Shown: positions 46,747 to 61,469 of the stretch, piece by piece
Layout of the letters: every line of letters starts with the position of its first letter
How positions within the stretch are numbered: position 1 is the first letter of the stretch
Assembly (NCBI GenBank): GCA_947488345.1
Contig: CANKZQ010000002.1
Span: 496,001-560,000, forward strand
Source of the DNA: an uncultured Flavobacteriaceae bacterium
Lineage (GTDB): Bacteria > Bacteroidota > Bacteroidia > Flavobacteriales > Flavobacteriaceae
Reading direction: 5' to 3'
DNA length: 64,000 nt
Program-made: the position numbers and the translations under genes
The notes under the pieces: model-generated
Databases searched by the model: none
Seen by the model: only the letters and a program-made list of their open reading frames with translations
Told to the model about the DNA's origin: nothing

Positions 46747-49083
46747 TTAGTTTTTGTTCAAAATATATTGTCTAGCTCTTTGAGTAAAAGCTTCATTTTC
46801 AGCTTCCGTATGCGTCAAGAAAAAATAACCGATTGCTCTTTCTAATTGCATCGAACTTATTAAATAATTATAATTGGCGGTTGCACTTGCTAACTGCGAT
46901 TGCAAATAGTTACTTTGAGCATCTATCAACTGTATCACAGGTACTGCACCACTTTCATAGGCGTTCTGTGTCAAATCCAAACTTTCTTTTGCTGTACTTT
47001 CGGCAACTTTCGATATTTCGATATTGGCAATTTGATTTACCAAATCTAGCACCAAATCATTCACACTTTTTTCTATACTTAAATAGGTATTGTCTTGTTG
47101 GACTAATAATTGATCTTCTTGAATTTTGGCTGTTTGCTTGTTGATATTACGCTGATTTTGTTGAAAAATTGGTAATGATAAATTCAACCCAACATTATAG
47201 GTGCCATCCGGCGCAAGAGGAACTCCAACGGGAAATGAAGCACCTTTACCTGATTGTGAGATTGCTAAACTATATTGGCCTTGTAAAGCCACTGTCGGTA
47301 AAAAACGCCCTGAAGTATTCAATTTATAATTGCGGTCTATGGCGTTCAAGTTATACGTGATATTTTTCAATTCAGGAGCATTCTTCTTTGCCTCCGCTAC
47401 CAAAAATTCAATTAAAAACGGTTGGAGTTTTGGATTGTCAAGTAATTCGAAGAAATCATCATAATTGTATTGACTAAATACCCCTTTTGAGAGTTCAGCA
47501 TCTTTAACATTTATCTCATTAGAAATAGGGTTGTTCAACAATTGATTAATAGTATTAAATGACTGTTTTAATTGATTACCAGCCTCTATCAAACTCTGTG
47601 TATTTTGCGCCAACTGACTTCGAAAACGTAGGACATCTGACTTTCCTGAAGCACCCGCTTCAAAATTTTGTTCTGCAAGTTCTAAGTTCCTTTTAGTAAT
47701 CAATAAATTTTGATTTTGAATATTGGCATTTGTTTTTAAAATAAGAGAATTAAAATAAGCAACTGAAGCGTTCAATAATGCATCTAATTCGGCAGAATTA
47801 TATACTTCTTGTTGTGCGCTTTGTAGGTCTTTTTGTATTCCCACATTCGTAGAAGCACTTGGTGAATACAGCAGTTGTTTTGCTACAATATTGCCCGATG
47901 TAGAGAACTCTGGGTTTGCACCACCAGCTATTTCTGCAACTCTCGGATCTATATACAATCCGTTGGCACTAGCCGTTACATCCGGTAAATAATTACTTTT
48001 CGCCAATTTGGTATCCTGTGCACTTAAATCAACATTTTTCTTTTCAACTTCTAAAGATAAATTTTTATCAATCACTCCTTTCATAATATCCAAAATGGAT
48101 AAAGAAGTTTCATCTGTATTTTCGTCATTTGTTCCGATAAAATCTGCTGTAGCCAACATACTATAGCGCAGTGGAAATCCAATCTTCTTCGCCGTAGTAA
48201 GATTTAAGGTTGTTTTATTTTTGTAGTCGATATATAGCGGTAATTCTGAAGGATTCGTTCCAGATAGAATCGATTCAACATTCAAGGCGATACGTCTAAA
48301 AAATTGACTAATATTTGTTTCTGGCTGATTCGTAGACAACGCACCTCTTTTTACATCTTGCACTCCATTTGAAGAAAATGAGACTAATTTTTTGGTGTTG
48401 ATAGCGTCGATCATTGATTTAAACTGGGCGTCAGTCAAAGAAAATCCTCCAGTGATATACACGGCGTCAACATCTCCCAAACCATTTTCTATATTTCCAT
48501 CTTCAGGTAAAGTAATCAAATTATACTCAGCAGGTTTCTCCTTGAAATAAGCATCAAAAAGATCCTTTATTGGCAGTGCATCGGGCAGATAACTATCTAC
48601 TACAATTCCTACCTTTTTATAATCATACAGCGATTTTAAGGCTCCTAAATCGTTTTTGTAAGATGAAGGTACCAAAATATAGGTAATGTTATCGATGCCC
48701 GATGTTTGCTGATTTTCAGGTAAGTCTATAAAATCACTATTCACATTACCAAACACAATTGTTGGTTTGTCATATTTTTGAAGTTGATAAATGGCAACAT
48801 TATTCACAACTCCAAAGGCTAAAATAATATCTACCTTACTTTTTGATAAGGCTTGATAATTCGCGGTAGCTACTTCTGATTTATAGTTATTCTCTAAAAC
48901 GTCTAGAAATTTAACGGTGGTATTCTGCCCCACGACAGATCTAATTTCCTTCTTTAAATCTTCTAATAAGGGGGCGGTCTGCGCCGAAGTTTTATCTGCT
49001 AAAATTCCTATAGAAATTGTTTTATTTTGAGAAAAAGTTGCGAAGTATATAAAAAAAGACAATACAAATAAGAGTTTTCTCAT
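46747..49083 (-). CDS. TolC-family outer-membrane factor with N-terminal ABC-substrate-binding-like domain
   Basis: The protein has 778 residues, far longer than the usual ~450 of TolC proteins. After a signal peptide (ending ATFSQ), about residues 22-310 form a two-lobed region resembling ABC_sub_bind/TrpX-type periplasmic binding proteins (ISIGILADKTSAQTAPLLEDL at the start; GVVNNVAIYQLQ, VDAVYITGGFSLTDAQF). From about 335 on come the TolC repeats, including long coiled-coil helices and Asn/Gln-rich turns (SSMQLERAIGYFF near the end). The binding-protein-like part may capture or sense the substrate before export. It is the first gene of the operon. Confidence 0.85.
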   Translation of the reverse strand: MRKLLFVLSFFIYFATFSQNKTISIGILADKTSAQTAPLLEDLKKEIRSVVGQNTTVKFLDVLENNYKSEVATANYQALSKSKVDIILAFGVVNNVAIYQLQKYDKPTIVFGNVNSDFIDLPENQQTSGIDNITYILVPSSYKNDLGALKSLYDYKKVGIVVDSYLPDALPIKDLFDAYFKEKPAEYNLITLPEDGNIENGLGDVDAVYITGGFSLTDAQFKSMIDAINTKKLVSFSSNGVQDVKRGALSTNQPETNISQFFRRIALNVESILSGTNPSELPLYIDYKNKTTLNLTTAKKIGFPLRYSMLATADFIGTNDENTDETSLSILDIMKGVIDKNLSLEVEKKNVDLSAQDTKLAKSNYLPDVTASANGLYIDPRVAEIAGGANPEFSTSGNIVAKQLLYSPSASTNVGIQKDLQSAQQEVYNSAELDALLNASVAYFNSLILKTNANIQNQNLLITKRNLELAEQNFEAGASGKSDVLRFRSQLAQNTQSLIEAGNQLKQSFNTINQLLNNPISNEINVKDAELSKGVFSQYNYDDFFELLDNPKLQPFLIEFLVAEAKKNAPELKNITYNLNAIDRNYKLNTSGRFLPTVALQGQYSLAISQSGKGASFPVGVPLAPDGTYNVGLNLSLPIFQQNQRNINKQTAKIQEDQLLVQQDNTYLSIEKSVNDLVLDLVNQIANIEISKVAESTAKESLDLTQNAYESGAVPVIQLIDAQSNYLQSQLASATANYNYLISSMQLERAIGYFFLTHTEAENEAFTQRARQYILNKN

Positions 49084-49700: not shown

Positions 49701-51284
49701 TTAGTTAATCAAATCTCCACAAACTTTAACTTTTAATTTTACAGTACTAGGCAAATAAGCCAATGGGATTATCTCTTTGGTCAGAACTTTTACACTATTT
49801 TTATTAGCTCCGTTATTTAAAATATTCTGTGTTACCTTATCTATTAATTCTTGTAGTGCTAACTCCTCACTTTTTTGTAAGGTATTTATCACCATTTCTT
49901 CTTGGCTACTTATTTGTGCAATACAGGCACCGAAGGCATTCGCAACTTCCATATGGTTTGGAAAAAGTACTTCGGAAGCACCATCTATTATCTTAGGAAG
50001 TAAAAATGCACCTCCTCCACATGCAATAACTGAAATGTCTTTAGCGTCTGTTTTTAATTTATCAACCAGCTTTTCAATAGCATTTTTGATGCTATTCTTG
50101 GTCATTTCTAATGCTTCATTATAATCTAATTGTGAAATTTCAACGATCCTATTCTTCAAATCAGATATTGCTATTGTACCTTCTATTTGGATTTGATTTT
50201 CTGCAATGAAAAAGTCCGACAGCGTTAATATCTCTCCCTTAAATGCCAATGCTTTTTCCTTTAATAGATATCCCACCGAATCTGGTCCTAAATGACATTC
50301 ATCATTGATAAATCTCACAATGGTTCCTCCTCCTATCCCAACAGCGACAACATCTGGCATCCTAAAATTGGTTGTTACTCCACCAATTTGAGCAGCTTGC
50401 GTGCTTTCTCTTGGGAAGTAATCGACCAACATCCCGGCATCAGACGTGGTTCCACCAACATCAATCACTACACCATCCTTTGCTTTGGAAAGTGCTCCTG
50501 CGCCTCTTATGCTATTTGTAGGGCCAGAGGAAATAGTTAGTACCGGAAAATTTCGTACTTGGTCTAAAGACATTAATGTGCCATCATTTTGACCAATGAA
50601 TAATTGAGGTGTTAATCCCAAATCACTAACTGTTTGTTTAAAGGCTGTAACCATTTTCATAGCTACACCCTGCAAAGCGGCGTTTAGGATGGCAGCATTT
50701 TCACGTTCTAATAATCCTAGACCACCTACTTGATGCGAACAACTAATTCGAACTGAATCACCAAGAATGTCTTTGGCCCATTGTGCAACTTGCAACTCTT
50801 GATCGGGCAAGGTTTTTGAAAATATACCAGTAATTGCTAAAGATTCTATAGCTCCTTTCATCTTTTTCAAACAGTCTTTTACTTCATTCTCAATCAAAGG
50901 ACTAATAAATCTTCCATCATATTCGTACCCGCCATGTACCATATAATTGTGATTTCCTAGAACAGTTTTTAAATCTTCGGGAAAATCTGTCATTGTTGGT
51001 ATCGCTTTACTAGCCGGTAGTCCAATACGAATACTTCCAATTTTATGAAGATGCTTACGTTCTACTAAGGCATTCGTACAATGCGTTGTGCCAAGCATAA
51101 TATACTTTATATCCTCTTTAGGTACCTTTTTTGCATTCAACACAAATTTTATCGCATTTGCAATGCCCGAACTAATATCTAATGTGGTGGTTTGTTTGGT
51201 TTTTGCCAGAATCTTGTTTTCATGAGATACTAAAACTGCATCTGTATTTGTGCCTCCGACATCTACTCCAATTTTATAGAACAT
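49701..51284 (-). CDS. Hydantoinase/oxoprolinase family protein, short HyuA type
   Basis: The protein has 527 residues. The N-terminal phosphate-binding motif GVDVGGTNTDAVLV (about 6-19) and the second VIDVGGTTSDAG (about 273) are ASKHA-ATPase motifs of the HyuA/HydA family. It also has GIGGGTIVRF (about 316). It is shorter than the ~690-residue HyuA at 55596 and pairs with the DUF917 gene that lies 4 nt upstream, a pairing known in this family. It probably couples ATP hydrolysis to opening of a cyclic amide or to a carboxylation. It is the last gene of the operon. Confidence 0.88.
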   Translation of the reverse strand: MFYKIGVDVGGTNTDAVLVSHENKILAKTKQTTTLDISSGIANAIKFVLNAKKVPKEDIKYIMLGTTHCTNALVERKHLHKIGSIRIGLPASKAIPTMTDFPEDLKTVLGNHNYMVHGGYEYDGRFISPLIENEVKDCLKKMKGAIESLAITGIFSKTLPDQELQVAQWAKDILGDSVRISCSHQVGGLGLLERENAAILNAALQGVAMKMVTAFKQTVSDLGLTPQLFIGQNDGTLMSLDQVRNFPVLTISSGPTNSIRGAGALSKAKDGVVIDVGGTTSDAGMLVDYFPRESTQAAQIGGVTTNFRMPDVVAVGIGGGTIVRFINDECHLGPDSVGYLLKEKALAFKGEILTLSDFFIAENQIQIEGTIAISDLKNRIVEISQLDYNEALEMTKNSIKNAIEKLVDKLKTDAKDISVIACGGGAFLLPKIIDGASEVLFPNHMEVANAFGACIAQISSQEEMVINTLQKSEELALQELIDKVTQNILNNGANKNSVKVLTKEIIPLAYLPSTVKLKVKVCGDLIN

Positions 51285-51288
51285 ATTC

Positions 51289-52371
51289 TTATCGTTTATT
51301 TAATTCTTCAATAGGGGTATATTTCTCTGCGTAGCCAAACTTTTGCGGACCACCTAATAGAAGCCCCGCTTCTGTTCTCCATTGTTCATCGGCTTTCATT
51401 CCCAAAACAATAACACGCGTACCAAATTGAATTGTTTCAGCCGTAATAGGCTGAGCATTTTCTGCATCTATTAATACAATTAAATCTGGGGTTATTGCTA
51501 CAGGTATTCCGTTCTTTTTTGCCATTAAAAATTCATTTTGAAAATCAATTTTCATGGTACTTCCTTGATCTTTATTCAAACCCAAAATTTCACAAACACC
51601 TTTGTTCCAGCGTCCATCAACTTTCGTATTGACATTACTCACTTTCCCTGAAAACAATTTAATAGCTGATGCTTTCTCTATCAAAGCATCAACTGGATTT
51701 TCAAGATTTATCTTAGCATCTAAAATGGCCTCCCCTAATACTTGAGCATAGCTTATAATACCATGGATTGCTGCCTTTTTTACTTGTTTCCCATTCATAG
51801 GATAACATCCAATGGCACAACTACCTCCCATTTGTATCGCTGTAGCACCCACCAACGTCTCTCCCCAAATATTATTAATAGTATGATATACATTCATATT
51901 ACCTTTTTCATCTGCTTGGGTAATTGGTGAAACGGGAATATCATGAAGCGTGAACGTGACCATTTCTAGACGAGGAAAAGCTCTACCCATACCATCAGCA
52001 TCTACTATTGGAATACCTTTTTCGGCAGCCACAGAAAACGGAATTACGCCATTTAAACCTCCAGCTTCAGCAGGCATTACTGCATCTATTTTCCTGCTAA
52101 GATAATTTTCCATCATTTCAAAGGCCTTGATAAATTCATCTCCCGAAAATAACTTTTCTACAAGGATCATCGGAGCACCAAATGCCGCGATTGGAACAAC
52201 CAAGGCATCATCACTTAATTCTTCAGCACTAATCAAAGTTACCTCTCCGAATTTTTTTATGGCTTCTTTGGCCAATAGTTTACCGATATATGGATCTCCT
52301 CCTCCACCCGTTCCTAAAACTGTGGATCCCATGGCAATGTATTCAATATCAGAAATAGTTACTTTTCGCAT
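51289..52371 (-). CDS. DUF917-family protein
   Basis: The protein has 360 residues with no signal peptide. Near the start is MGSTVLGTGGGGDPYIG, a glycine-rich motif typical of DUF917, followed by VVPIAAFGAPMI and GGSCAIGCYPMNG. DUF917 proteins are usually encoded beside, or fused to, short hydantoinase-A-like proteins and may be their catalytic partner. Here it lies 4 nt before the short HyuA gene and 1 nt after the permease gene, so it is tightly coupled to both. Confidence 0.85.
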   Translation of the reverse strand: MRKVTISDIEYIAMGSTVLGTGGGGDPYIGKLLAKEAIKKFGEVTLISAEELSDDALVVPIAAFGAPMILVEKLFSGDEFIKAFEMMENYLSRKIDAVMPAEAGGLNGVIPFSVAAEKGIPIVDADGMGRAFPRLEMVTFTLHDIPVSPITQADEKGNMNVYHTINNIWGETLVGATAIQMGGSCAIGCYPMNGKQVKKAAIHGIISYAQVLGEAILDAKINLENPVDALIEKASAIKLFSGKVSNVNTKVDGRWNKGVCEILGLNKDQGSTMKIDFQNEFLMAKKNGIPVAITPDLIVLIDAENAQPITAETIQFGTRVIVLGMKADEQWRTEAGLLLGGPQKFGYAEKYTPIEELNKR

Positions 52372-52372
52372 G

Positions 52373-53572
52373 TTAGTTATTTATTTTTTGAAGTATGATA
52401 TAGACTAGCGCTGCAACTAAAATGCCTAAAATATTTTTAATATCCGACGTCATTATCAACATTAAACTCACCCCACTTAACCACGAGATAATACCTTTCC
52501 AATTTACTTTCTCAGGTTTTTCATTGTACGTTTTCGTTAAAAAATAATCGGCTATCATAACACCAGCAATTGGGGTTATCGCCACTGTTAAAACCGTTAT
52601 AAAACTCATAAAATAATTGAGTATTCCTATAATAGCAAGACCTATCCCCAGCATACCTGCGATCATTGTCACTTTAGATCGTGAAGATTCTTTCAGTTTT
52701 AGCATGTTCGTAAAAGCTAATCCTGATGAATAAATATTCACCACATTTGTCGTCCATGTAGCCAGAATAAGCGTTGACATCGCAAAGAAAGGATATCCTA
52801 AGGATGAAAATATCTCTACAATATCATAGGTGTTTTGTGTAATAGCAAATATGGCTCCTATCGCCAATAAGCAAATTGCCGATGGTATGATTCCAACAAT
52901 AGAACCCAAAATAGCATCCTTTTTAGTGGCCGCGAACCGGTTATAATCTGGCGCAATTACACCACCTACAGCTACAAAACCTATCGTAAAACCTATTGCT
53001 TGAAATAATGGCATTGATTGTGTTGGTTTAAAGTTCATTATCTCACTAAAACTATGAGTTTGAAAGGTTACTACAAGGCTATACATGAGCAATATTAAAA
53101 GAGTCGGTACAGCAATATAGTTTAACCATTTTAGATATTTAAAGCCAAATACAGCGGTAAGTACCATGACCATGCCCCAAAAAGCAGAAGATACCCAAAC
53201 TGGAATTTCTATTCCGTTCATTTCGAGGATTATTTTTGAAAAAGAAGCCCCAGCAATATTACTTTGTATACCAAACCAACCGAGAGTTGAAATGCCAATT
53301 ACGAGTCCAACTATAATGGTAGCCCCCAATTCACCAAAACTACTAGATGCTAACGAAACTGTATTTTTTCTCTGCTCAACTGCGGCGACGCTTAAAAATG
53401 ACATAAATAGTACAACAAAACTAAAACCAATTAGTCCAGCCAGAATAGTATATTCAAAACTAAGTGCTGCAATAAGTGTACTTCCAATGAGTAAAGATGG
53501 TACACTTACCATACCTCCGAACCAAATACCAGCGAGACTATACCATCTAATATTATTTTGATTTTCTTTCAT
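52373..53572 (-). CDS. NCS1-family permease (cytosine/purine/hydantoin type)
   Basis: The protein has 399 residues with 11-12 transmembrane helices. The N-terminal half shows the GIWFGGMVSVPSLLIGSTL and GLVIGISTLGWFGIQSNIAGASF segments typical of NCS1/CodB transporters. GFVAVGGVIAPDYNRFA is a conserved loop. It imports an unknown small molecule, most likely the substrate of the hydantoinase-like enzymes encoded around it. Families with this fold carry nucleobases, allantoin and hydantoins. Confidence 0.87.
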   Translation of the reverse strand: MKENQNNIRWYSLAGIWFGGMVSVPSLLIGSTLIAALSFEYTILAGLIGFSFVVLFMSFLSVAAVEQRKNTVSLASSSFGELGATIIVGLVIGISTLGWFGIQSNIAGASFSKIILEMNGIEIPVWVSSAFWGMVMVLTAVFGFKYLKWLNYIAVPTLLILLMYSLVVTFQTHSFSEIMNFKPTQSMPLFQAIGFTIGFVAVGGVIAPDYNRFAATKKDAILGSIVGIIPSAICLLAIGAIFAITQNTYDIVEIFSSLGYPFFAMSTLILATWTTNVVNIYSSGLAFTNMLKLKESSRSKVTMIAGMLGIGLAIIGILNYFMSFITVLTVAITPIAGVMIADYFLTKTYNEKPEKVNWKGIISWLSGVSLMLIMTSDIKNILGILVAALVYIILQKINN

Positions 53573-53584
53573 GGTTTTTCATCA

Positions 53585-53932
53585 TTAAATTTTCTGAATT
53601 TCATGTGTCATGTTTTGATTCAACACATAAATAAGTCTTGTATCTTCTATCACATTACCAGCTTGTGCCTCACCTGCATTGATATACACAACACTGCCTT
53701 TTTCTAGTTTACCAATTGGTAAGCCATCTTCATCCAACATTTCTATACATCCTTCTATGATGATAGAAACCTCATTAAACGGGTGTCTCGAAGATCCTGT
53801 TTCTGGAATTCGAGTTCCTTTTTTTAAGAATACGGTTCCGCATATGGTATTCACGTTAGCATTAGTTTGGGAAATAAGTTCTTTATTGTAATACTCTTCT
53901 GCTGATGGATATGTTATTCTTTTTAGTTCCAT
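53585..53932 (-). CDS. Single-domain cupin
   Basis: The protein has 115 residues from the ATG at 53932, which lies just after the HyuB stop; an in-frame TTG at 53938 would add two residues and overlap that stop. The cupin motif 1 region shows GSSRHPFNEVSIIIEG and the motif 2 region GSVVYINAGEAQAGNVIED. Metal ligands are partly retained (His in motif 1, Glu). Its place between HyuB and the permease suggests a sensor, isomerase or dioxygenase role for the same substrate. The function is unproven. Confidence 0.78.
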   Translation of the reverse strand: MELKRITYPSAEEYYNKELISQTNANVNTICGTVFLKKGTRIPETGSSRHPFNEVSIIIEGCIEMLDEDGLPIGKLEKGSVVYINAGEAQAGNVIEDTRLIYVLNQNMTHEIQKI

Positions 53933-53934
53933 AT

Positions 53935-55596
53935 TCAAATTTGATAAAACTCTTGCGCCTCCTTTTTGGTGATATAACCATTTTTTATATCTAATAAAAC
54001 TTGTTCTTTTGGGCGATTCTTCGGATCGCCATAACCACCTCCAGTAGCGGTTGCGCAGCGCACAATATCTCCTTTTTCTAAGAAGATGTTGGTTCCTAAA
54101 CTATGTCTTTCTTTAGTCCCATCTTTTCTAATAATCATGAAATAGTTATAAGATCCATCGTGCCCGCCGTTCATTCCCCATGTTTTCGTTTTTTCGCCTA
54201 AAAAAGCTCCCGTTACATGAGCACCGTCAGAAATAATTTTATAGTCTACGTACTGGCCATTTCCTCCTTGAAATTCTCCATATCCTCCTCCTTCGTTATG
54301 AAAAGCATATTGCTCTACTTCAATACCGTAGCGCATTTCACGTATTTCTATAGGGATATTATATGATTCGCCACTGCCGCAAGAGAGCTGTCCTCTATTA
54401 CCATCATGAGTTGCAGAAGCTCCCCAACCACCTGCTAAAGGCTCTGCCTGAATATAAAATTGATTCGTATCTGGATGCATTCCCGAAATAAAAGTCGCAC
54501 AGACAGAACGCATATGTCCTGCAGGCAATTTATCTGGAATCAACGGAGCCAAAATTTTCCATATCAAATCTATTGTGGTAACCATGACTTCATAATATAC
54601 TGATACAGCCGAAGGTGTAACGGCACTTACTATAGTGCCAGGTTCACAAAGTACTTTCATAGGTCTAAACGCACCTCCATTGGCATTCATACTTGGCGTT
54701 GTAATAGCTTTAAAAAGACTTCGACATCCGGTGACCAATCCACTATATGATAAATTTGTTGCGCCTTTCACTTGCGGATGAGAACCATTAAAGTCTACTA
54801 TAAATTCAGTATCAGAAACTGTTATTTTTGCTTTGATCGGAAAAGGGCCTTCTCCAAAACCGTTATCCTCAATTTCTGAAACTCCTTCATAATCTCCATT
54901 AGGTATTGTTTTTAAGGCCTCAATGCACATGCGTTCACCATAATCTAGAAAATCATCTTTAGCTTTTATAAATGTTTTTAATCCGTATTTCTCAATTATT
55001 GAAATTACACGTTTTGCACCTACTTCTGCAGCTGCAATTCCTGCAAATAAATCTCCAAGCGTACTATCAGGTAATCGTACATTCGCTTTAATAAGATCAA
55101 CCAAAGCGTCATTTAACTTACCTTTTGATTTTACTTTTATGAATGGAAACTGTAAACCTTCTTGATAAATTTCTGTTGCTACTGTAGACACCGAACCGGG
55201 AAAAGTGCCTCCTAATTCTGTCCAATGTGCTTTGTTAACCGTGAATGCAACCAATTCTTTATGATAAAAAACTGGATATATTACTGACACATCGGACAGA
55301 TGTGTTCCTCCTCCAGCGTAAGGTGTATTTGCAATAATAACATCACCTTCTTCTAAAACGCTCTCTCCGTTAAATTTTTCCAATGTAGCTCTTACAACCG
55401 AATCTAAGGCTGCTAAAAAAGCAGTTACTCCATTACCTTGCGCCAATAATTCTCCTTTTACGTCGGTTATGCCCACTGCATAATCTAACGATTCATATAT
55501 AATAGGACTCATACTTGTTCGCTGTAATGTTTGAAACATCTCATCTCCAGCTGCTACCAAGGTGTCTTGTATTATTTCTAAAGTAAATTTTTCCAT
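53935..55596 (-). CDS. hyuB: Hydantoinase B/oxoprolinase family protein
   Basis: The protein has 553 residues. It has the HyuB opening LEIIQDTLVAAGDEMFQTLQRTSMSPIIYESLD and the NTPYAGGGTHLSDVSVIYPVF segment. The GGWGASATHDGNRGQLS and EGGGYGEFQGGNGQ stretches are also family hallmarks. HyuB forms the second subunit with HyuA, and its gene overlaps the hyuA stop by 1 nt (TAATG). The pair may open N-methylhydantoin, 5-oxoproline or a similar ring, or act as an acetone-carboxylase-like enzyme; the sequence does not decide. Confidence 0.9.
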   Translation of the reverse strand: MEKFTLEIIQDTLVAAGDEMFQTLQRTSMSPIIYESLDYAVGITDVKGELLAQGNGVTAFLAALDSVVRATLEKFNGESVLEEGDVIIANTPYAGGGTHLSDVSVIYPVFYHKELVAFTVNKAHWTELGGTFPGSVSTVATEIYQEGLQFPFIKVKSKGKLNDALVDLIKANVRLPDSTLGDLFAGIAAAEVGAKRVISIIEKYGLKTFIKAKDDFLDYGERMCIEALKTIPNGDYEGVSEIEDNGFGEGPFPIKAKITVSDTEFIVDFNGSHPQVKGATNLSYSGLVTGCRSLFKAITTPSMNANGGAFRPMKVLCEPGTIVSAVTPSAVSVYYEVMVTTIDLIWKILAPLIPDKLPAGHMRSVCATFISGMHPDTNQFYIQAEPLAGGWGASATHDGNRGQLSCGSGESYNIPIEIREMRYGIEVEQYAFHNEGGGYGEFQGGNGQYVDYKIISDGAHVTGAFLGEKTKTWGMNGGHDGSYNYFMIIRKDGTKERHSLGTNIFLEKGDIVRCATATGGGYGDPKNRPKEQVLLDIKNGYITKKEAQEFYQI

Positions 55597-57662
55597 TAAG
55601 CAGTTCTTTGAGGGGTAATAATTAAATTTCCGTATTCATCCACTAAAACTTCATGAAGCGGCGTAACTACAGTGGTAGTAGCATTTTCTGCTATAACAGC
55701 CGGCCCCTTTAACATCATGTTTGGTTCTAAGAGTTCTCGTCGATAGAAAGATGTGTCATGTTTTCCTAAATCATCAAAATCGACTTCTTTGGTATCGAAA
55801 ATAGCATCTTCTACTTTTCTATCTGTAACCCTTAATTTCGGAAAATCAGGTTTTTCTACTTCTACTTCTGCTACCAGATGGAAATTAACCAGTTCTACTG
55901 GAGCATCTAACTCAAACGAATACTGTTTTTTATGTTCACTATGAAAATTTGCAATTATGGTTTTAAGGGGCGTATTTTTCGAGAAGTTCGTAAGCATCAC
56001 CTTTACATAATGTTCTTGTCCAACATATCTCAGATCAGCATAATATGTGAATTTCATCTCATTTTGTTGGTAATTATCTGCTTTAAAATTTAAAACTGCT
56101 TCGTCTTTAATTTCTGAAAAAATTGATAGTATCGTCTCTTTTTGTTTCTCAGAAAGTGTTAAAACGTTTGTTCTAATATAATCTCTTCGAACATCCGACA
56201 TCAGCATACCGAATGCTGAAAACACTCCTGCATGCGGAGGAATAATTAATTCGGATACCTGAAGTTCTCTTGCTAAATCTGCTCCATGCATGGCACCACC
56301 TCCACCAATTACAATCATAGAAAAATCTCTTGGATCATGTCCTTTATTAACTGAAATAAGTTTTAATGCGTTTACCATATTCGCATTTGCGATACGAAGA
56401 ATACCCTTTGCAACGTCCTCTTTAGAAGCATTTAATTTTTCACATAAGACACGAGAGGCTTCCTCTATACTTGAATAATCAGGTTGTATTTCTCCTCCTA
56501 TGAAGTAATCGGGATGTATGCGGCCTGTAATAATATTCGCGTCTGTAGTTGTCAAGTTCTTTCCACCTCTTCCGTAAGCTGCTGGTCCAGGTGAAGCTCC
56601 TGCACTTTTGGGACCAACGTGCATTTTACCACCTTGATCTATCCATGCAATACTTCCTCCTCCATTGCCAATTTCAACAATATCAATCACAGGTGTTTGA
56701 ATGGGGTATCCTGCTTTCGTTCTAGAGTGGTCTATCTTATAATTGGTCGTTATTTTTACTTGTCCGTTTTCTACCAAAGCACATTTTGCTGTGGTTCCAC
56801 CTATATCTAAAACAATTAGATCTTTTTTATCAATAACTTTTCCTAAGGCAATGGCTCCAAAAACACCACTAGCGGGACCCGACTCTACCATGGTAATAGG
56901 ATTTGACTTCACATCATTTATACTAGTGATACCGCCATTAGATTGCATTATAAAAGGTGCATTTCGTAATTCTTTTTCTCTTAACCTCTCTTCGAGGTTA
57001 TTTAAATATTTCTTGGCAATAGGTAATACATATCCTGATAATACTGTAGAACTAGTCCGTTCATATTCTCGCCATTCTCGGGTGATTTGGTGAGAAGCAA
57101 TAATCTCAATATCACTATTTAAATGAAAAATTTCTTTCAAAAGTTGAATTTCATGTTTCGGATTCTTATACGCATGTAGTAAACAGATCGCTATCGATTC
57201 TACGTTTTCTTCTTTACATGTTTTAAGAATAGACTTTAGCGTTGACGTATTTAATTCTTTATTAATTTCACCTTTATAATTTATTCGCTCTTCAACCTCA
57301 AATCTTAAATGTCGAGGCACAAAAGGAGGTTGTTTTATAAAGTTAAAGTTGAACAAATCTGGTCTATTACAACGTGCAATTTCCAGTACATCTCTAAAGC
57401 CTTTTGTAGTAATCAATGCGGTTTTCGCACCTTTACGTTCTGTCAATGCATTAATTACAACTGTAGTGCCATGGGCAAAAAAATCTATCTCTTTTAGATT
57501 TATATTGCCTTTAGCGATGGTATTCAATATTCCTTGTTCAAAGTTTGACGGGGTCGTATCAGATTTTACAACTTTTACTCCTAATGAGTTGCCTGATTTC
57601 TTGTCAAATTCTAAGCATACCAAATCTGTAAAAGTCCCGCCTATATCTGTTGCAACTCTCAT
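55596..57662 (-). CDS. hyuA: Hydantoinase A/oxoprolinase family protein
   Basis: The protein has 688 residues, the normal HyuA length. The ATP-binding motif ATDIGGTFTDLVCL lies at about 4-17, with the second phosphate motif VLDIGGTTAKCALV (about 283-296) and GGGGAMHGADLARELQVSELIIPPHAGVFSAFG (abridged: about 445-478). It pairs with the HyuB protein of the next gene. The reaction is ATP-dependent ring opening or carboxylation, with the substrate unknown. It lies about 95 nt downstream of the TonB-dependent receptor gene, with a terminator-like hairpin between them. Confidence 0.9.
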   Translation of the reverse strand: MRVATDIGGTFTDLVCLEFDKKSGNSLGVKVVKSDTTPSNFEQGILNTIAKGNINLKEIDFFAHGTTVVINALTERKGAKTALITTKGFRDVLEIARCNRPDLFNFNFIKQPPFVPRHLRFEVEERINYKGEINKELNTSTLKSILKTCKEENVESIAICLLHAYKNPKHEIQLLKEIFHLNSDIEIIASHQITREWREYERTSSTVLSGYVLPIAKKYLNNLEERLREKELRNAPFIMQSNGGITSINDVKSNPITMVESGPASGVFGAIALGKVIDKKDLIVLDIGGTTAKCALVENGQVKITTNYKIDHSRTKAGYPIQTPVIDIVEIGNGGGSIAWIDQGGKMHVGPKSAGASPGPAAYGRGGKNLTTTDANIITGRIHPDYFIGGEIQPDYSSIEEASRVLCEKLNASKEDVAKGILRIANANMVNALKLISVNKGHDPRDFSMIVIGGGGAMHGADLARELQVSELIIPPHAGVFSAFGMLMSDVRRDYIRTNVLTLSEKQKETILSIFSEIKDEAVLNFKADNYQQNEMKFTYYADLRYVGQEHYVKVMLTNFSKNTPLKTIIANFHSEHKKQYSFELDAPVELVNFHLVAEVEVEKPDFPKLRVTDRKVEDAIFDTKEVDFDDLGKHDTSFYRRELLEPNMMLKGPAVIAENATTTVVTPLHEVLVDEYGNLIITPQRTA

Positions 57663-57684
57663 ATCTATTTTTATCTAATTTGAT

Positions 57685-57715
57685 TAAAAAAGCCACTAAT
57701 GAATTTTAGCGGCTT
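57685..57715 (-). terminator. Hairpin with T tract between TonB receptor and hyuA
   Basis: On the minus strand AAGCC (57715-57711) pairs with GGCTT (57694-57690), then after a C/A mismatch CTAA with TTAG, with a 6-nt loop and a run of T just after (A tract 57686-57690). It would end or reduce transcription after the receptor gene, before hyuA. Confidence 0.6.
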
Positions 57716-57757
57716 AGTATTCACTTAAAAACTAATTCAAAATTCTTTAGCGAAATA

Positions 57758-60121
57758 TTAAAATTTATAGGTTAAAGTTGTACCAAACGCCGCCGGCTGA
57801 CCTAACCATGCCAAATCGGATCCTCCATTGGAGAATGTTTGATCAAAAAATTCAGTAATATACTGGGTGTCCGTTATGTTAGTCCCCCAAAGACCTACTG
57901 TAAACTTATCAAAGGTGAAATTGACTCTAGCATTTAAAATGCTATATCTTGGTGAAACGGCCGCGTTGTCTTCATGCCAGTACATTTCTCCTGTACCTTT
58001 TAAATTTACATTACCACTGAAAGCAATCTTATCTGAAATATCAAATCTAGATTCAAGACCAATACTGTAACTATCTTGTGGTACAAGAGGCGTTGCATTG
58101 CCAGATACATCAATTGTTTCGTTCGCTCCTGTACTTACTGTAGAACTACCATTTTCGATAGTAGACTTACTCACTCCGTAACTAGCTAGAATATCGAGCC
58201 AATTAGAAGCCCTTATACGCATGTCTGCTTCAAAACCAAATGATTCACTTTCAGGAACATTGAAATTTCCTATAAGAATTTGACCAGCTCCTCCATTGAG
58301 TACCAATGCATACAACTGCTGATCTGTAAAGTCGATATAATATCCCGATAGATTAAGAATAAAACGATTGTTCCAATAAGAATTTTTAATACCTATTTCA
58401 TAATTATCTGTAATTTCGGGATTGAAAGAAGTATCGTAACGAACTGTCGTACCTTGATTAAAGCCACCGGTTCTATACCCCTTGCCATAATTGGCATACA
58501 TCAACATATTCTTGGTTGCCTGAAGAGACAACGAAAACTTGGGTTGCAATTGTGTATCGACTCTATTTGGATTTGTACCTTCACTTCTATTATCCTGACT
58601 GATCTTGTCATTATCATAACGCATTCCTGCTGATAAGGTTAATTTATCTGATACTTTAAAGTTAACAAAGCCAAATACTGCAAACGTTTTATAATTATTG
58701 GTAAAATCACCCACTGCCAGAGGACTTTGAACGCCTGATGGAGCGAAAGGAGGTGCAAAAAAACCAAAATCTGCCGAAGCTCTCGTGGTTAATAGCTTAT
58801 CTAAGTTCTGATAAAACGCTCCTAAATCCCAGCTAATATTACTATTTGAATCATCTTTAGAGCTCAAGCGAATCTCTTGATTAAATGATTCAGTATTACT
58901 ATCTTGATCTTGTCGTAAAATATCTGCAGGAGTAAAATCTAAATCTCCAAAAGCATTTCTTTCTGCTTTGTTATATGTAGTTAAAGATGTTAATCGTAAT
59001 TTTTCGTAGTTAAAATCAACTTTTAAATTACCATATGTTCCTTTAAGCGTGCCAACTCCTCTCTGGTCAGCTTGAATTGCCAAGTTGTCATAGTCATCTG
59101 GGGCTATTTTCGCCTGTCCATTTGTTGGAGCCGCATAGTATACAGCCCCTGCTTCAGTATCAATAATTTGACCTGTTAAAGTTGCTGAAACTTTAGATGA
59201 CAACCTTGTTTTTAATTGTCCGCGTATTGATAAATCCTGCATGAAATCCGGTGCTTCATTTAAGGTAATATTATTTAAAAGACCGTCTCCCTTTTTATAA
59301 GAGCCAGATACTCGATAAAACAATTTATCTTTTACTATCGGACCAGTTGAAGACAATTGTGCGCTAAATAGGTTTCCATTTGCATACCCAACTTGTACTT
59401 TGTTTTTAGAAGTATTTGTGGGTTCATTCGTTACAATGTTAATAGCTCCTGCAATTGCATTCTTACCGTACAATGCACCTTGAGGCCCTTTAACCACCTC
59501 AATTAAAGCAACATCAAATAATTCTTGATTTAATAAGTTGGCATCTGGCAGCGTCACTCCGTCAATTACAAAGGCTATTGGAGCATCACCATTTCTAATT
59601 TGTGAAATTCCGCGAACAGTAATAAAGTTATTACCTACGTTCTGGGACGTTGTAAAATTAACGTTTGGAATCTGATCGGCAAATGTTTGAACATTACTAA
59701 TACCTTTCACTTCAATATCCTGAGCGGTAAAAGCAACTACCGATTCAGGAATAGACTGTACTGATTCTGTTCTTCTTCTAGCGCGACTATTCACATTATC
59801 AAAACCACGAATGACAACTTCATCTAATTGAGATGCATCTTCTTCGAGTGTCACATTAATAGTTCGTCTTTCATCAAGAACTACTTCTTTCGATTTATAA
59901 CCTAAAAATGAAAAAACTAGCGTCGCTCCTTGATTTACCTTGATCGTATAATTTCCATTAACGTCTGTGGTCGTTCCGTTAGAGGTTCCTTTTTCAATAA
60001 CATTTACACCGTATAATGATTCAGAAGTAGACTTTACATTACCACTAACTGTAATTTCTTGGGAGAATGATAAAAAAGGAAATAAAAGAACTAATAGTAA
60101 TAAATTTCGTGTCATTTTCAT
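57758..60121 (-). CDS. TonB-dependent receptor with carboxypeptidase-regulatory-like N-domain
   Basis: The protein has 787 residues with a signal peptide (ending LSFSQ). A carboxypeptidase-regulatory-like beta domain (about 22-95) leads to the plug (about 120-230, with PNVNFTTSQNVGNNFITVRG) and a 22-stranded-type barrel to the C-terminal GTTLTYKF. The length is shorter than SusC-type (about 1000) receptors and there is no SusD gene here, so it resembles siderophore or small-molecule receptors. As first gene of the locus, it should bring the substrate of the Hyu enzymes across the outer membrane. Confidence 0.92.
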   Translation of the reverse strand: MKMTRNLLLLVLLFPFLSFSQEITVSGNVKSTSESLYGVNVIEKGTSNGTTTDVNGNYTIKVNQGATLVFSFLGYKSKEVVLDERRTINVTLEEDASQLDEVVIRGFDNVNSRARRRTESVQSIPESVVAFTAQDIEVKGISNVQTFADQIPNVNFTTSQNVGNNFITVRGISQIRNGDAPIAFVIDGVTLPDANLLNQELFDVALIEVVKGPQGALYGKNAIAGAINIVTNEPTNTSKNKVQVGYANGNLFSAQLSSTGPIVKDKLFYRVSGSYKKGDGLLNNITLNEAPDFMQDLSIRGQLKTRLSSKVSATLTGQIIDTEAGAVYYAAPTNGQAKIAPDDYDNLAIQADQRGVGTLKGTYGNLKVDFNYEKLRLTSLTTYNKAERNAFGDLDFTPADILRQDQDSNTESFNQEIRLSSKDDSNSNISWDLGAFYQNLDKLLTTRASADFGFFAPPFAPSGVQSPLAVGDFTNNYKTFAVFGFVNFKVSDKLTLSAGMRYDNDKISQDNRSEGTNPNRVDTQLQPKFSLSLQATKNMLMYANYGKGYRTGGFNQGTTVRYDTSFNPEITDNYEIGIKNSYWNNRFILNLSGYYIDFTDQQLYALVLNGGAGQILIGNFNVPESESFGFEADMRIRASNWLDILASYGVSKSTIENGSSTVSTGANETIDVSGNATPLVPQDSYSIGLESRFDISDKIAFSGNVNLKGTGEMYWHEDNAAVSPRYSILNARVNFTFDKFTVGLWGTNITDTQYITEFFDQTFSNGGSDLAWLGQPAAFGTTLTYKF

Positions 60122-60166
60122 AATTTGATTTAGTTAATTCTGATGATAAAAGTATACATCTTCATT

Positions 60167-60229
60167 TTCCAAACATATAATTCCAAATATTAATTTATAT
60201 ATTAGTAATTCCAACAGCAAAAATTGGAA
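60167..60229. promoter_or_regulatory. Cluster of TTCCAA/TTGGAA repeats in the divergent region
   Basis: TTCCAA occurs at 60167-60172, 60181-60186 and 60209-60214, and its inverted form TTGGAA at 60224-60229. The last two form an inverted repeat with a 9-nt spacer. The cluster fills the ~110-nt region between the TonB receptor gene and the divergent 411-residue gene, so it may be the operator that controls both. Confidence 0.45.
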
Positions 60230-60233
60230 ATAA

Positions 60234-61469
60234 ATGGAAAATTCTATACATAAGAATACAAACGAATCATTGCTCTTGACAAAACAAACTTTTAATAGAC
60301 TACTTAAAAGCGTCATATCCCATTTTAAAAAGTCTCATGATTTCCCTTCAAAATATAAGGATTCACAATTATATGGTTTTGGTAATTACGATACCACAAA
60401 GCCAAATCTAAAGAATGACTTAGAACTCATATTGAGAGGTTATGTAAATGGTAAGTATTTATATAATAAACAACGCGAAGTAGCTTCTGGAAAACCTATC
60501 GTCAAAATTAGTCGAGACTATAGGGAACTATATTTTAATTATTTGGGTTATACCGGGATTTATGATTTTCTAGATAAAGAAATGAAAAATGTTGACGAAC
60601 GCGAAAAACAGATACAACTTATAGAAAACATATCACGAAATGAGGACTTCCATTACGTATGTTACTATTATGGAGAAGACAAAAAAATGACTAAAGGCCA
60701 ATTAATTATTCATAACAATTGGAAAACTTTTGAGTTAATTTTTGTCTATTTTAATCCACGAAATGAACATGTCTTCTATGAGTTATTTGGTAGTATAAAA
60801 CAAGAAAGTAATTTTTTACATTTTGATTGTAAACATTTTGTTCATAGAAAAAAGATGGAAGGGTCGAAAATGATTTTTTACGTTGGTTTAAATTCATTCA
60901 ATGATAGACCTATACTCATTGGAGCTTATTCATCGAATGATAAGTATGATCATAGTATTGCTGGTAAACTAATGCTTGTACAAATGAATTCAAAGCAAGA
61001 AATGGAAGAAGAATCAAAGTCTCTTCATTTTGATCCAATTATTTGTCAAGAACTGGTTCAATCTCGTTATGTGATACCAAGTAGGATACCTACTCAATTA
61101 TCGAAGATATCTTCAAAAAGCCCTTATGCTAGTATCTTCGGAAAAATCCCTTCAAATTATAAAGCAAAATTTATTATGACGGATAATGAAATTGACCTTC
61201 GGTTTAGTATAAAGAAGTACCATTATAATATTGTGAGTGATATGGAGGATATTGTCTTAGAAAACGATAGAATTCAAATTGTGAGTAAGGGACAGATACT
61301 AGAACTTCATTTTGAAATTACCGGAATTTTTCTGCTTCAAAACATATCTATGTATATTAAGAATTATGAATTGTTTTCTAAAAATAGAGCGACTACGGGA
61401 CATTTCTCTGGTATTGACATTAATAATAATCCTGTTTCTGGTAATGTTCAAATAGAAACGCTGAACTAA
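60234..61469 (+). CDS. 411-residue cytoplasmic protein of unknown family, divergent from the hyu locus
   Basis: The protein has no signal peptide or transmembrane segment. The N-terminal ~115 residues are mostly helical and charged; a segment at about 96-112 (YRELYFNYLGYTGIYDF) recalls the YLGY...DF helix found in some uncharacterised Bacteroidota regulators, from memory. Residues about 135-260 are beta-rich (KKMTKGQLIIHNNWKTFELI, then GSKMIFYVGLNSFNDRPILIGAYSS), and the C-terminal ~130 residues form another beta-rich block. Its divergent position and the repeat cluster between the genes suggest a ligand-responsive regulator of the hyu locus. No catalytic motif is seen and I cannot name the family. 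Confidence 0.7.
   Translation: MENSIHKNTNESLLLTKQTFNRLLKSVISHFKKSHDFPSKYKDSQLYGFGNYDTTKPNLKNDLELILRGYVNGKYLYNKQREVASGKPIVKISRDYRELYFNYLGYTGIYDFLDKEMKNVDEREKQIQLIENISRNEDFHYVCYYYGEDKKMTKGQLIIHNNWKTFELIFVYFNPRNEHVFYELFGSIKQESNFLHFDCKHFVHRKKMEGSKMIFYVGLNSFNDRPILIGAYSSNDKYDHSIAGKLMLVQMNSKQEMEEESKSLHFDPIICQELVQSRYVIPSRIPTQLSKISSKSPYASIFGKIPSNYKAKFIMTDNEIDLRFSIKKYHYNIVSDMEDIVLENDRIQIVSKGQILELHFEITGIFLLQNISMYIKNYELFSKNRATTGHFSGIDINNNPVSGNVQIETLN

What the first reader, a model, noticed from the sequence alone, without database searches (positions are those of the whole stretch)
49701..61469. Uncharacterised hydantoinase/DUF917 catabolic locus with its own receptor, permease and unknown divergent protein
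A TonB-dependent receptor, HyuA, HyuB, cupin, NCS1 permease, DUF917 and a second, shorter HyuA are consecutive on one strand, with overlaps of 1-6 nt in most steps. Two different HyuA modules with different partners are combined in one locus, which suggests a two-step pathway for an unknown cyclic amide, imide or ring compound. There is no SusD or dihydropyrimidinase gene, so the usual hydantoin or polysaccharide schemes do not fit.
Basis: partly seen in the sequence, partly recalled or inferred. Interest (0 to 1): 0.72.

Follow-up and report, generated by a model that had tools for sequence, protein, structure and literature searches.

The report
Probable cyclic-dipeptide uptake and degradation operon
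A flavobacterium carries a compact gene set that probably imports ring-shaped two-amino-acid molecules and uses ATP to open the ring, which would supply candidate genes for a long-known but genetically unexplained way of feeding.

Summary
The locus is a real, conserved unit: 13 other Flavobacteriaceae loci share NCS1-DUF917-HyuA2, and 11 of the 12 with that stretch held also have HyuA1-HyuB. Most carry a racemase-family gene that this genome lacks; its nearest solved relative, OpaE, epimerises a residue inside a cyclic peptide. On plasmids of 12 genera with HyuB at 40% identity or more (one locus each), 11 have an Xaa-Pro-peptidase-type or proline-metabolism gene nearby; flavobacterial sister locus L088 holds P5C dehydrogenase and proline dehydrogenase. 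No M20-type carbamoylase over cut-off and only one urocanase in the genome speak against hydantoin and ergothioneine routes. Best reading: TonB-fed uptake and ATP-dependent ring opening of cyclic dipeptides (2,5-diketopiperazines), probably prolyl ones. The two HyuA systems are separable modules, not shown to act in series; DUF917 probably replaces HyuB as partner of the short HyuA. The substrate is inferred, not shown. New variant of a known kind.

The parts
57758..60121 (-). TonB-dependent receptor (787 aa; CarboxypepD_reg-like extension, plug, barrel), presumed outer-membrane importer
   Evidence: Pfam PF00593, PF07715, PF13715; orthologues at 61-81% identity in the other Flavobacteriaceae loci where held
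55596..57662 (-). HyuA1, long form (688 aa), ATP-using subunit
   Evidence: PF05378, PF01968, PF19278; phosphate motifs at 6 and 286 and adenosine motif GASPGP at 355
53935..55596 (-). HyuB (553 aa), metal-dependent ring-hydrolysis subunit
   Evidence: PF02538, 508 bits; D38, H99, D102, H124 invariant in 10 of 10 aligned HyuB, matching the CapB metal tetrad Asp41, His99, Asp102, His124 described in PMC8453981 (equivalence of D38 and Asp41 inferred from the alignment offset)
53585..53938 (-). Small cupin-like protein (TTG start as listed; likelier ATG start at 53932); role unknown
   Evidence: weak cupin matches; homologues in the same slot; start choice
52373..53572 (-). NCS1 permease, presumed inner-membrane importer
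   Evidence: PF02133; best solved relatives are cytosine permease 7qoa (E 8e-29) and hydantoin permease Mhp1 (E 4e-21)
51289..52371 (-). DUF917 / S-Me-THD-like protein, proposed hydrolase partner of HyuA2
49701..51284 (-). HyuA2, short form (527 aa), proposed ATP-using partner of DUF917
   Evidence: PF05378, PF01968, no PF19278; phosphate motifs at 8 and 275, no GxxPGP
60234..61469 (+). Divergent 411-aa protein of unknown family, candidate regulator or sensor of the receptor gene (role inferred from position only)
   Evidence: no family match; divergent from the TBDT in 10 of 11 testable flavobacterial loci, window included, and in 6 of 6 fetched paralogous TBDT loci
57690..57715 (-). Terminator-like stem-loop with T tail between TBDT and HyuA1, possible attenuator
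   Evidence: pattern scan only, not above the shuffle mean in number

Best explanation
The locus imports cyclic dipeptides (2,5-diketopiperazines), probably proline-containing ones, and opens the ring with ATP. Proposed route: the TonB receptor takes the compound across the outer membrane and the NCS1 permease across the inner membrane. HyuA1 activates one ring amide with ATP, as in caprolactamase, and HyuB hydrolyses it at its metal site to a linear dipeptide. A general prolidase or dipeptidase then releases amino acids. HyuA2 with DUF917 is a second, separable ATP-dependent ring opener in which DUF917 takes the place of HyuB, for other isomers or related rings. In most relatives an epimerase of the OpaE type brings D-containing rings to the usable form; this genome lacks it. 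Shown here: gene content, conservation, motifs, fold of DUF917, neighbourhood associations. Inferred: substrate, direction of each step, HyuA2-DUF917 partnership, regulatory role of the 411-aa protein.
For: HyuAB is nearest to ATP-dependent cyclic-amide hydrolases and keeps the catalytic motifs. Of 12 plasmid genera with HyuB at 40% identity or more among the 40 records listed of 917 (one locus each), 8 have an M24 Xaa-Pro-type peptidase within the held flank (in pieces in Planococcus), 5 have dipeptide-type ABC transporters, and 11 have M24, proline dehydrogenase, P5C dehydrogenase or a proline-racemase-family gene; Mycetohabitans has none. Two M24 proteins compared with the PDB are nearest to Xaa-Pro aminopeptidases and dipeptidases, with ectoine hydrolase far lower; for seven M24 proteins the best NCBIfam model is PepQ, all under its cut-off. 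Flavobacterial sister locus L088 holds P5C dehydrogenase (760 bits, cut-off 613.6) and proline dehydrogenase (PF01619, 254.7 bits) with TBDT-HyuAB-cupin-NCS1. Relative L050 adds a branched-chain aminotransferase over cut-off and a pyrroline-2-carboxylate-reductase-like gene under cut-off. Enterococcus raffinosus has two permease-DUF917-HyuA sets beside D-proline reductase and proline racemase. The gene missing here is nearest to OpaE, which acts on a residue in a tricyclic peptide product, with both catalytic cysteines in 13 of 13 homologues. PMC11055893 reports PF01177, DUF917, dipeptide ABC transporters and peptidases around cyclodipeptide-oxidase-like genes. The HyuB tree places the window inside a group of mostly peptidase- or proline-linked loci.
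Against: No window gene is a peptidase or is tied to a known substrate; no flavobacterial DUF917-type locus has an M24 peptidase in the held flanks, so the dipeptidase must come from elsewhere (four M24 genes in the genome, none shown to be a prolidase). More distant HyuAB loci lack the link: L037 and L038 (37-38%) have no M24, proline dehydrogenase or proline racemase (only a 28% aldehyde-dehydrogenase match in L038, annotated phosphonoacetaldehyde dehydrogenase), and L024 (34%) and L025 (38%) no M24. Devosia and A. vitis have sugar-type ABC transporters; the Devosia racemase-family protein scores best as trans-3-hydroxyproline dehydratase, under cut-off. Some neighbours could fit hydantoin-type chemistry: amidohydrolases in L024 and L036, an ArgE/DapE deacylase in L035, an M20 hydrolase and an amidohydrolase in L055. 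The nearest solved HyuAB is called N-methylhydantoinase. The authors of PMC11055893 took DUF917 for hydantoinases and favoured hydantoin/allantoin-like substrates. HyuA2 lacks the adenosine motif, so its ATP use is unproven. Lactobacillus-type and Peribacillus DUF917-HyuA cassettes show no proline neighbour.
Confidence: 0.58

Rival explanations
1. Another proline- or amino-acid-derived cyclic amide (a lactam or imide that is not a diketopiperazine) is the substrate; the chemistry is the same but the product is not a dipeptide.
For: CapAB-type enzymes act on simple lactams (PMC8453981, passages); Devosia, A. vitis and Rhodococcus relatives have proline-related genes but sugar-type ABC transporters and no M24 peptidase in the held flank.
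Against: Eight of 12 genera have an Xaa-Pro-type peptidase, which needs a peptide product; the epimerase is closest to OpaE.
Confidence: 0.22
2. Hydantoin or allantoin use: HyuAB opens 5-substituted hydantoins to N-carbamoyl amino acids, the NCS1 protein being an Mhp1-like hydantoin permease and the lost gene a hydantoin racemase.
For: Gene set recalls the Pseudomonas Hyu cluster (recalled, no call); N-methylhydantoinase is the best solved hit; Mhp1 is the second-best solved family for the permease; amidohydrolase or M20/ArgE-type genes near L024, L035, L036, L055.
Against: No carbamoylase over the TIGR01879 cut-off in the genome (four weak matches under it; the control rings over cut-off in 6 of 14 genomes); proline and Xaa-Pro neighbours are unexplained.
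Confidence: 0.1
3. Ergothioneine or thiohydantoin breakdown, because DUF917 includes thiohydantoin desulfurases.
For: NCBIfam best hits of DUF917 are S-methyl-thiohydantoin and thiohydantoin desulfurase.
Against: 128.7 and 122.8 bits against cut-offs 450 and 440; only one urocanase in the genome, whereas the pathway as I recall it needs a thiourocanate hydratase besides HutU.
Confidence: 0.04
4. A biosynthetic or modifying role on cyclic-peptide natural products, as for cyclodipeptide oxidases and OpaE.
For: PF01177 and DUF917 are enriched near cyclodipeptide-oxidase-like genes (PMC11055893); OpaE is biosynthetic.
Against: TonB receptor and permease here, and ProDH/P5CDH and peptidases in relatives, point to uptake and breakdown.
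Confidence: 0.04

Closest known systems
Caprolactamase CapAB (Pseudomonas jessenii) and the ATP-dependent lactamase/hydantoinase/oxoprolinase family
   Same: HyuA1-HyuB share domains, ATP motifs and metal tetrad; best NCBIfam equivalogs are CapA and CapB
   Different: 494 and 264 bits against cut-offs of 1000; receptor, permease, cupin and DUF917-HyuA2 alongside
Permease-DUF917-hydantoinase cassette of Firmicutes (C. difficile CDR20291_1615-1617; Enterococcus, Lactiplantibacillus, Limosilactobacillus, Peribacillus plasmids)
   Same: same three gene families side by side as NCS1-DUF917-HyuA2
   Different: on those plasmids without HyuAB in the held flanks and with PucR, TetR or other regulators; here joined to TonB receptor, HyuAB and cupin
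HyuAB-epimerase-Xaa-Pro peptidase loci (Roseateles, Rhizobium BG6, Ketogulonicigenium, Thermus, Parageobacillus, Novosphingobium plasmids)
   Same: HyuA1 49-53% and HyuB 42-51% identity; cupin annotated in several
   Different: these hold the peptidase and the epimerase, and several a dipeptide ABC importer; the window has TBDT plus NCS1, no peptidase, no epimerase
OpaE (oxepinamide epimerase, 9qbx)
   Same: nearest solved relative of the epimerase found in sister loci, both catalytic cysteines kept
   Different: fungal biosynthesis; the gene was not found in this genome (no positive control)
Thiohydantoin and S-methyl-thiohydantoin desulfurases
   Same: same two-domain superfamily
   Different: far under both equivalog cut-offs; the window protein sits beside a HyuA

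Membership tests
ATP-dependent lactamase/hydantoinase (HyuAB) family | HyuA phosphate motifs and GxxPGP adenosine motif | tested here: met
   HyuA1 has all three, as 8 of 8 long HyuA checked, window included
ATP-dependent lactamase/hydantoinase (HyuAB) family | HyuB Asp-His-Asp-His metal tetrad | tested here: met
   D38, H99, D102, H124 invariant in 10 of 10, compared with positions in PMC8453981
ATP-dependent lactamase/hydantoinase (HyuAB) family | ATP-dependent ring opening | not testable with these tools
   needs protein
Caprolactamase CapAB | NCBIfam equivalog cut-offs NF050156 and NF050157 | tested here: not met
   494.3 and 263.8 bits against 1000
HyuA2 as a full-length HyuA | adenosine motif GxxPGP and C-terminal domain PF19278 | tested here: not met
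   GxxPGP in 0 of 13 short HyuA; no PF19278 in the window protein
Thiohydantoin desulfurase / S-methyl-thiohydantoin desulfurase | equivalog cut-offs NF058529 and NF058532 | tested here: not met
   122.8 and 128.7 bits against 440 and 450
DUF917 / S-Me-THD-like superfamily | both domains and the fold of 2o3i | tested here: met
Hydantoin-utilisation (Hyu) cluster | N-carbamoyl amino acid amidohydrolase | tested here: not met
   no TIGR01879 match over cut-off in the genome; only this M20-type family was tested
Hydantoin-utilisation (Hyu) cluster | hydantoin permease of Mhp1 type | tested here: inconclusive
   NCS1 protein matches cytosine permease better than Mhp1
Sus-type polysaccharide locus | SusD partner next to the receptor | tested here: not met
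   no SusD family among the ten proteins scanned, which include the eight of the locus
Diketopiperazine-degrading system (no formal family) | dipeptidase and proline catabolism genes in the locus | tested here: not met
   absent from the window locus; present in related HyuAB loci and in L088 (proline genes)
Diketopiperazine-degrading system (no formal family) | turnover of diketopiperazines | not testable with these tools
   needs protein or culture

The most novel reading that the evidence does not exclude
Short HyuA plus DUF917 is a new two-component ATP-dependent ring hydrolase in which HyuA2 turns a ring amide into a phosphorylated lactim and DUF917 hydrolyses it, chemically parallel to its relatives that hydrolyse S-methyl-thiohydantoin. 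Together with HyuAB it gives Bacteroidota a TonB-fed pathway for cyclic dipeptides, with two unrelated hydrolase partners for the same kind of HyuA activator.
Probability: 0.35. Interest if true: 0.78.

Novelty: new variant of a known kind. Interest (0 to 1): 0.6.

Why it matters
Microbial breakdown of cyclic dipeptides has been measured repeatedly, yet an AMB Express paper of 2013 (PMC3852281, passages read) concludes that it remains unclear which enzymes hydrolyse them. This locus and its relatives give named candidate genes for uptake, epimerisation and ring opening in cultivable strains, so the question becomes directly testable. If right, it would also correct some 'hydantoinase/oxoprolinase' annotations and suggest a role for the DUF917-HyuA cassettes of gut and food Firmicutes.
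Full report
Observation. The ORFs at 49701-61469 are present as described and Pfam names them TonB-dependent receptor, long HyuA, HyuB, NCS1 permease, S-Me-THD/DUF917 and short HyuA; the cupin is only weakly matched and the divergent 411-aa protein has no family. Spacing is tight but mostly by short gaps, not overlaps: 95, -1, -4 (or +2 with the likelier ATG), 12, 1 and 4 nt. A terminator-like stem lies in the 95-nt gap, in a region where such sites are no commoner than in shuffles.

Conservation. One scan of genome contigs with DUF917 returned ten loci, nine of them from Flavobacteriaceae (by record title and recalled taxonomy) at 78-85% identity, and one archaeal at 36%. A family draw of 397 genomes has six with DUF917, the own included; a phylum draw of 395 has one, the own. 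NCS1-DUF917-HyuA2 run together in 14 of 14 loci, window included. HyuA1-HyuB are present in 12 of 13 loci where that stretch is held (L009 is too short; L053 lacks them). Flanks differ by eye. The set is thus rare, patchy and kept as a unit.

What the window lacks. Between HyuB and cupin, 9 of the 12 HyuAB-bearing loci have an intact Asp/Glu/hydantoin-racemase-family gene of about 265 aa; it is broken in L005 and absent in L006 and in the window. It was not found elsewhere in the own genome (which had no positive control). Its best solved relative is OpaE (E 4e-32), ahead of allantoin/hydantoin racemases. OpaE converts a D-Phe residue within a tricyclic peptide product to L, using two cysteines (PMC12661438, first part and passages read); both cysteines are invariant in the 13 homologues aligned. 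PMC8159430 (abstract read) reports raised alpha-proton acidity of prolyl residues in diketopiperazines and triketopiperazines, which makes epimerisation chemically reasonable. Other additions: an MDR oxidoreductase in L002, L010 and L050, and in L050 a branched-chain aminotransferase (over cut-off) and an ornithine-cyclodeaminase-family protein whose best model is a pyrroline-2-carboxylate reductase (271.5 bits, cut-off 322).

Neighbourhood in other phyla. tblastn of HyuB on plasmids matched 917 records, of which 40 were listed; the listed ones at 40% identity or more fall in 12 genera, and I fetched one locus from each. Eight have an M24 peptidase: Parageobacillus, Novosphingobium, Planococcus (in pieces), Thermus (26% to the query), Rhizobium BG6, Roseateles, Qingshengfaniella and Ketogulonicigenium. 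Parageobacillus also has PruA and proline dehydrogenase; Rhodococcus has both without M24; Devosia and Agrobacterium have a proline-racemase-family gene; Mycetohabitans has none. So 11 of 12 have a proline or Xaa-Pro gene, and 5 of 12 a dipeptide-type ABC transporter (DppB match: L019, L021, L023, L033, L063). With one M24 query at E 1e-8, 366 places were found in the 7.3-Gb collection, 0.001 per 20 kb on average; with a far more generous one per Mb, 8 of 12 would still be very unlikely (rough, the collection is uneven and the query misses distant M24). More distant HyuAB loci do not show it: L037 and L038 (37-38%) have no M24, proline dehydrogenase or proline racemase (L038 has a 28% aldehyde-dehydrogenase match annotated phosphonoacetaldehyde dehydrogenase), and L024 (34%) and L025 (38%) no M24. 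Seven loci (L019-L025) were first met through the racemase search; five of them are among the 12, L025 is listed at 36.8%, L024 is not listed. Against the reading, amidohydrolases lie in L024 and L036, an ArgE/DapE deacylase in L035, and an M20 hydrolase plus an amidohydrolase a few kb from DUF917-HyuA in L055.

Flavobacterial sister loci. HyuB at 63-69% identity also occurs in G103, G747 and as a second copy in G766. L088 (G103) runs: 411-aa homologue (divergent, 29%), TBDT (41%), P5C dehydrogenase (TIGR01236, 760 bits, cut-off 613.6), MDR, HyuA (60%), HyuB (64%), cupin, an unknown gene, NCS1 (31%), proline dehydrogenase (PF01619, 254.7 bits; under the cut-offs of the NCBIfam models it matches). 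This puts proline catabolism in an operon of the same build within the same family. In the HyuB tree (30 rows; Thermus not included, its HyuB being cut off) the window lies in a supported 14-row group with L088 and Novosphingobium, inside a supported 23-row group of mostly peptidase- or proline-linked loci that also holds Mycetohabitans (none); several outer rows have long branches and unsure places.

The DUF917-HyuA2 module. In 14 of 14 records fetched outside Bacteroidota (not a random sample; nearly all found by DUF917, HyuA2 or racemase searches) short HyuA and DUF917 lie together, with HyuB in the held stretch in only three (L022, L024, L026/L031). Companions are cytosine-permease-type transporters (8 records), dipeptide-type ABC transporters (L011, L027, L028, L030), an M24 gene best matched by PepQ under its cut-off in the archaeal L011, and in Enterococcus raffinosus D-proline reductase, proline racemase and selD. 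Peribacillus, Limosilactobacillus, Lactiplantibacillus and Arsenophonus cassettes show no proline neighbour. C. difficile has permease, DUF917 and hydantoinase genes under consecutive locus tags (PMC12915319, passage). Of 13 short HyuA, 11 have both phosphate motifs and none has GxxPGP; 8 of 8 long HyuA have all three. My proposal that DUF917 stands in for HyuB rests on this pairing without HyuB and on the analogy between a phosphorylated lactim and the S-methyl-thiohydantoin substrate of named DUF917 relatives; it is inference. The DUF917 model (pLDDT 83.8) matches only 2o3i well.

The receptor and the 411-aa protein. The 411-aa gene is divergent from the TBDT in 10 of 11 testable flavobacterial loci, window included (L006 has no match in the few hundred bases held), and in L088. 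Of 397 genomes, 20 hold a match at E 0.001 or better, some partial. Six loci without HyuAB in the held stretch (L091-L096) were fetched: all six have the 411-aa homologue, a TBDT (43-47%), a protein of 341-362 aa without Pfam match over cut-off and an NCS1 permease; L092 also has an M20 dipeptidase over the TIGR01893 cut-off, and L094 a protein that looks alike but was not scanned. So the receptor-permease pair belongs to a wider group, part of which is linked with peptide use.

Verdict. The substrate class 'cyclic amide' is well supported by HyuAB homology and motifs. 'Cyclic dipeptide, probably prolyl' is the reading that best joins the Xaa-Pro peptidases, dipeptide transporters, proline catabolism, OpaE-like epimerase and the published cyclodipeptide-oxidase neighbourhoods (PMC11055893, passages). 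PMC6061476 (passages) had already suggested that some genes annotated as oxoprolinases may be cyclic dipeptide hydrolases. No biochemical proof exists here, and the authors of PMC11055893 preferred hydantoin-like substrates for their clusters. I put 0.58 on the diketopiperazine reading.

Noticed in passing
L091-L096, between TBDT and NCS1 (e.g. L093:12332-13369): A protein of 341-362 aa takes the enzyme slot in paralogous TBDT loci; no Pfam match over cut-off (weak M29 in two of six) and only a weak match to 2,5-dihydroxypyridine dioxygenase 7cn3 (E 1e-4). Possibly another peptide or ring hydrolase.
   Followed up: partly
L006:3093-4445 and L053:8408-9763: A protein with both DUF917 domains, in L006 with a lipoprotein-like N-terminus by my reading, sits just after the TBDT in two loci that lack the epimerase; a role outside the cytoplasm, without ATP, is unexplained.
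   Followed up: partly
L005:7354-8149: The epimerase gene of Gillisia sp. CAL575 is frameshifted, a loss beside those in L006 and the window.
   Followed up: partly
L049 (own genome, contig C7 near 107-112 kb): A second, distant HyuAB pair (35% and 28% identity) lies with FAD oxidoreductase, aconitase-family and methyltransferase genes, so it probably serves another pathway.
   Followed up: partly
window 46747-49083, - strand: A 778-aa outer-membrane efflux protein has a long N-terminal part that looks like a periplasmic binding protein (my reading of the sequence); Pfam matches only the efflux part.
   Followed up: partly
L039 (Enterococcus raffinosus plasmid): Two PucR-permease-DUF917-HyuA sets in a row beside the D-proline reductase genes, suggesting that they feed proline to its reduction.
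   Followed up: no
L041 (Rhizobium leguminosarum plasmid): HyuA-DUF917-DUF917 with an Asp/Glu-racemase-family gene and a nitroreductase-family gene, resembling the cyclodipeptide-oxidase neighbourhoods described in PMC11055893.
   Followed up: no
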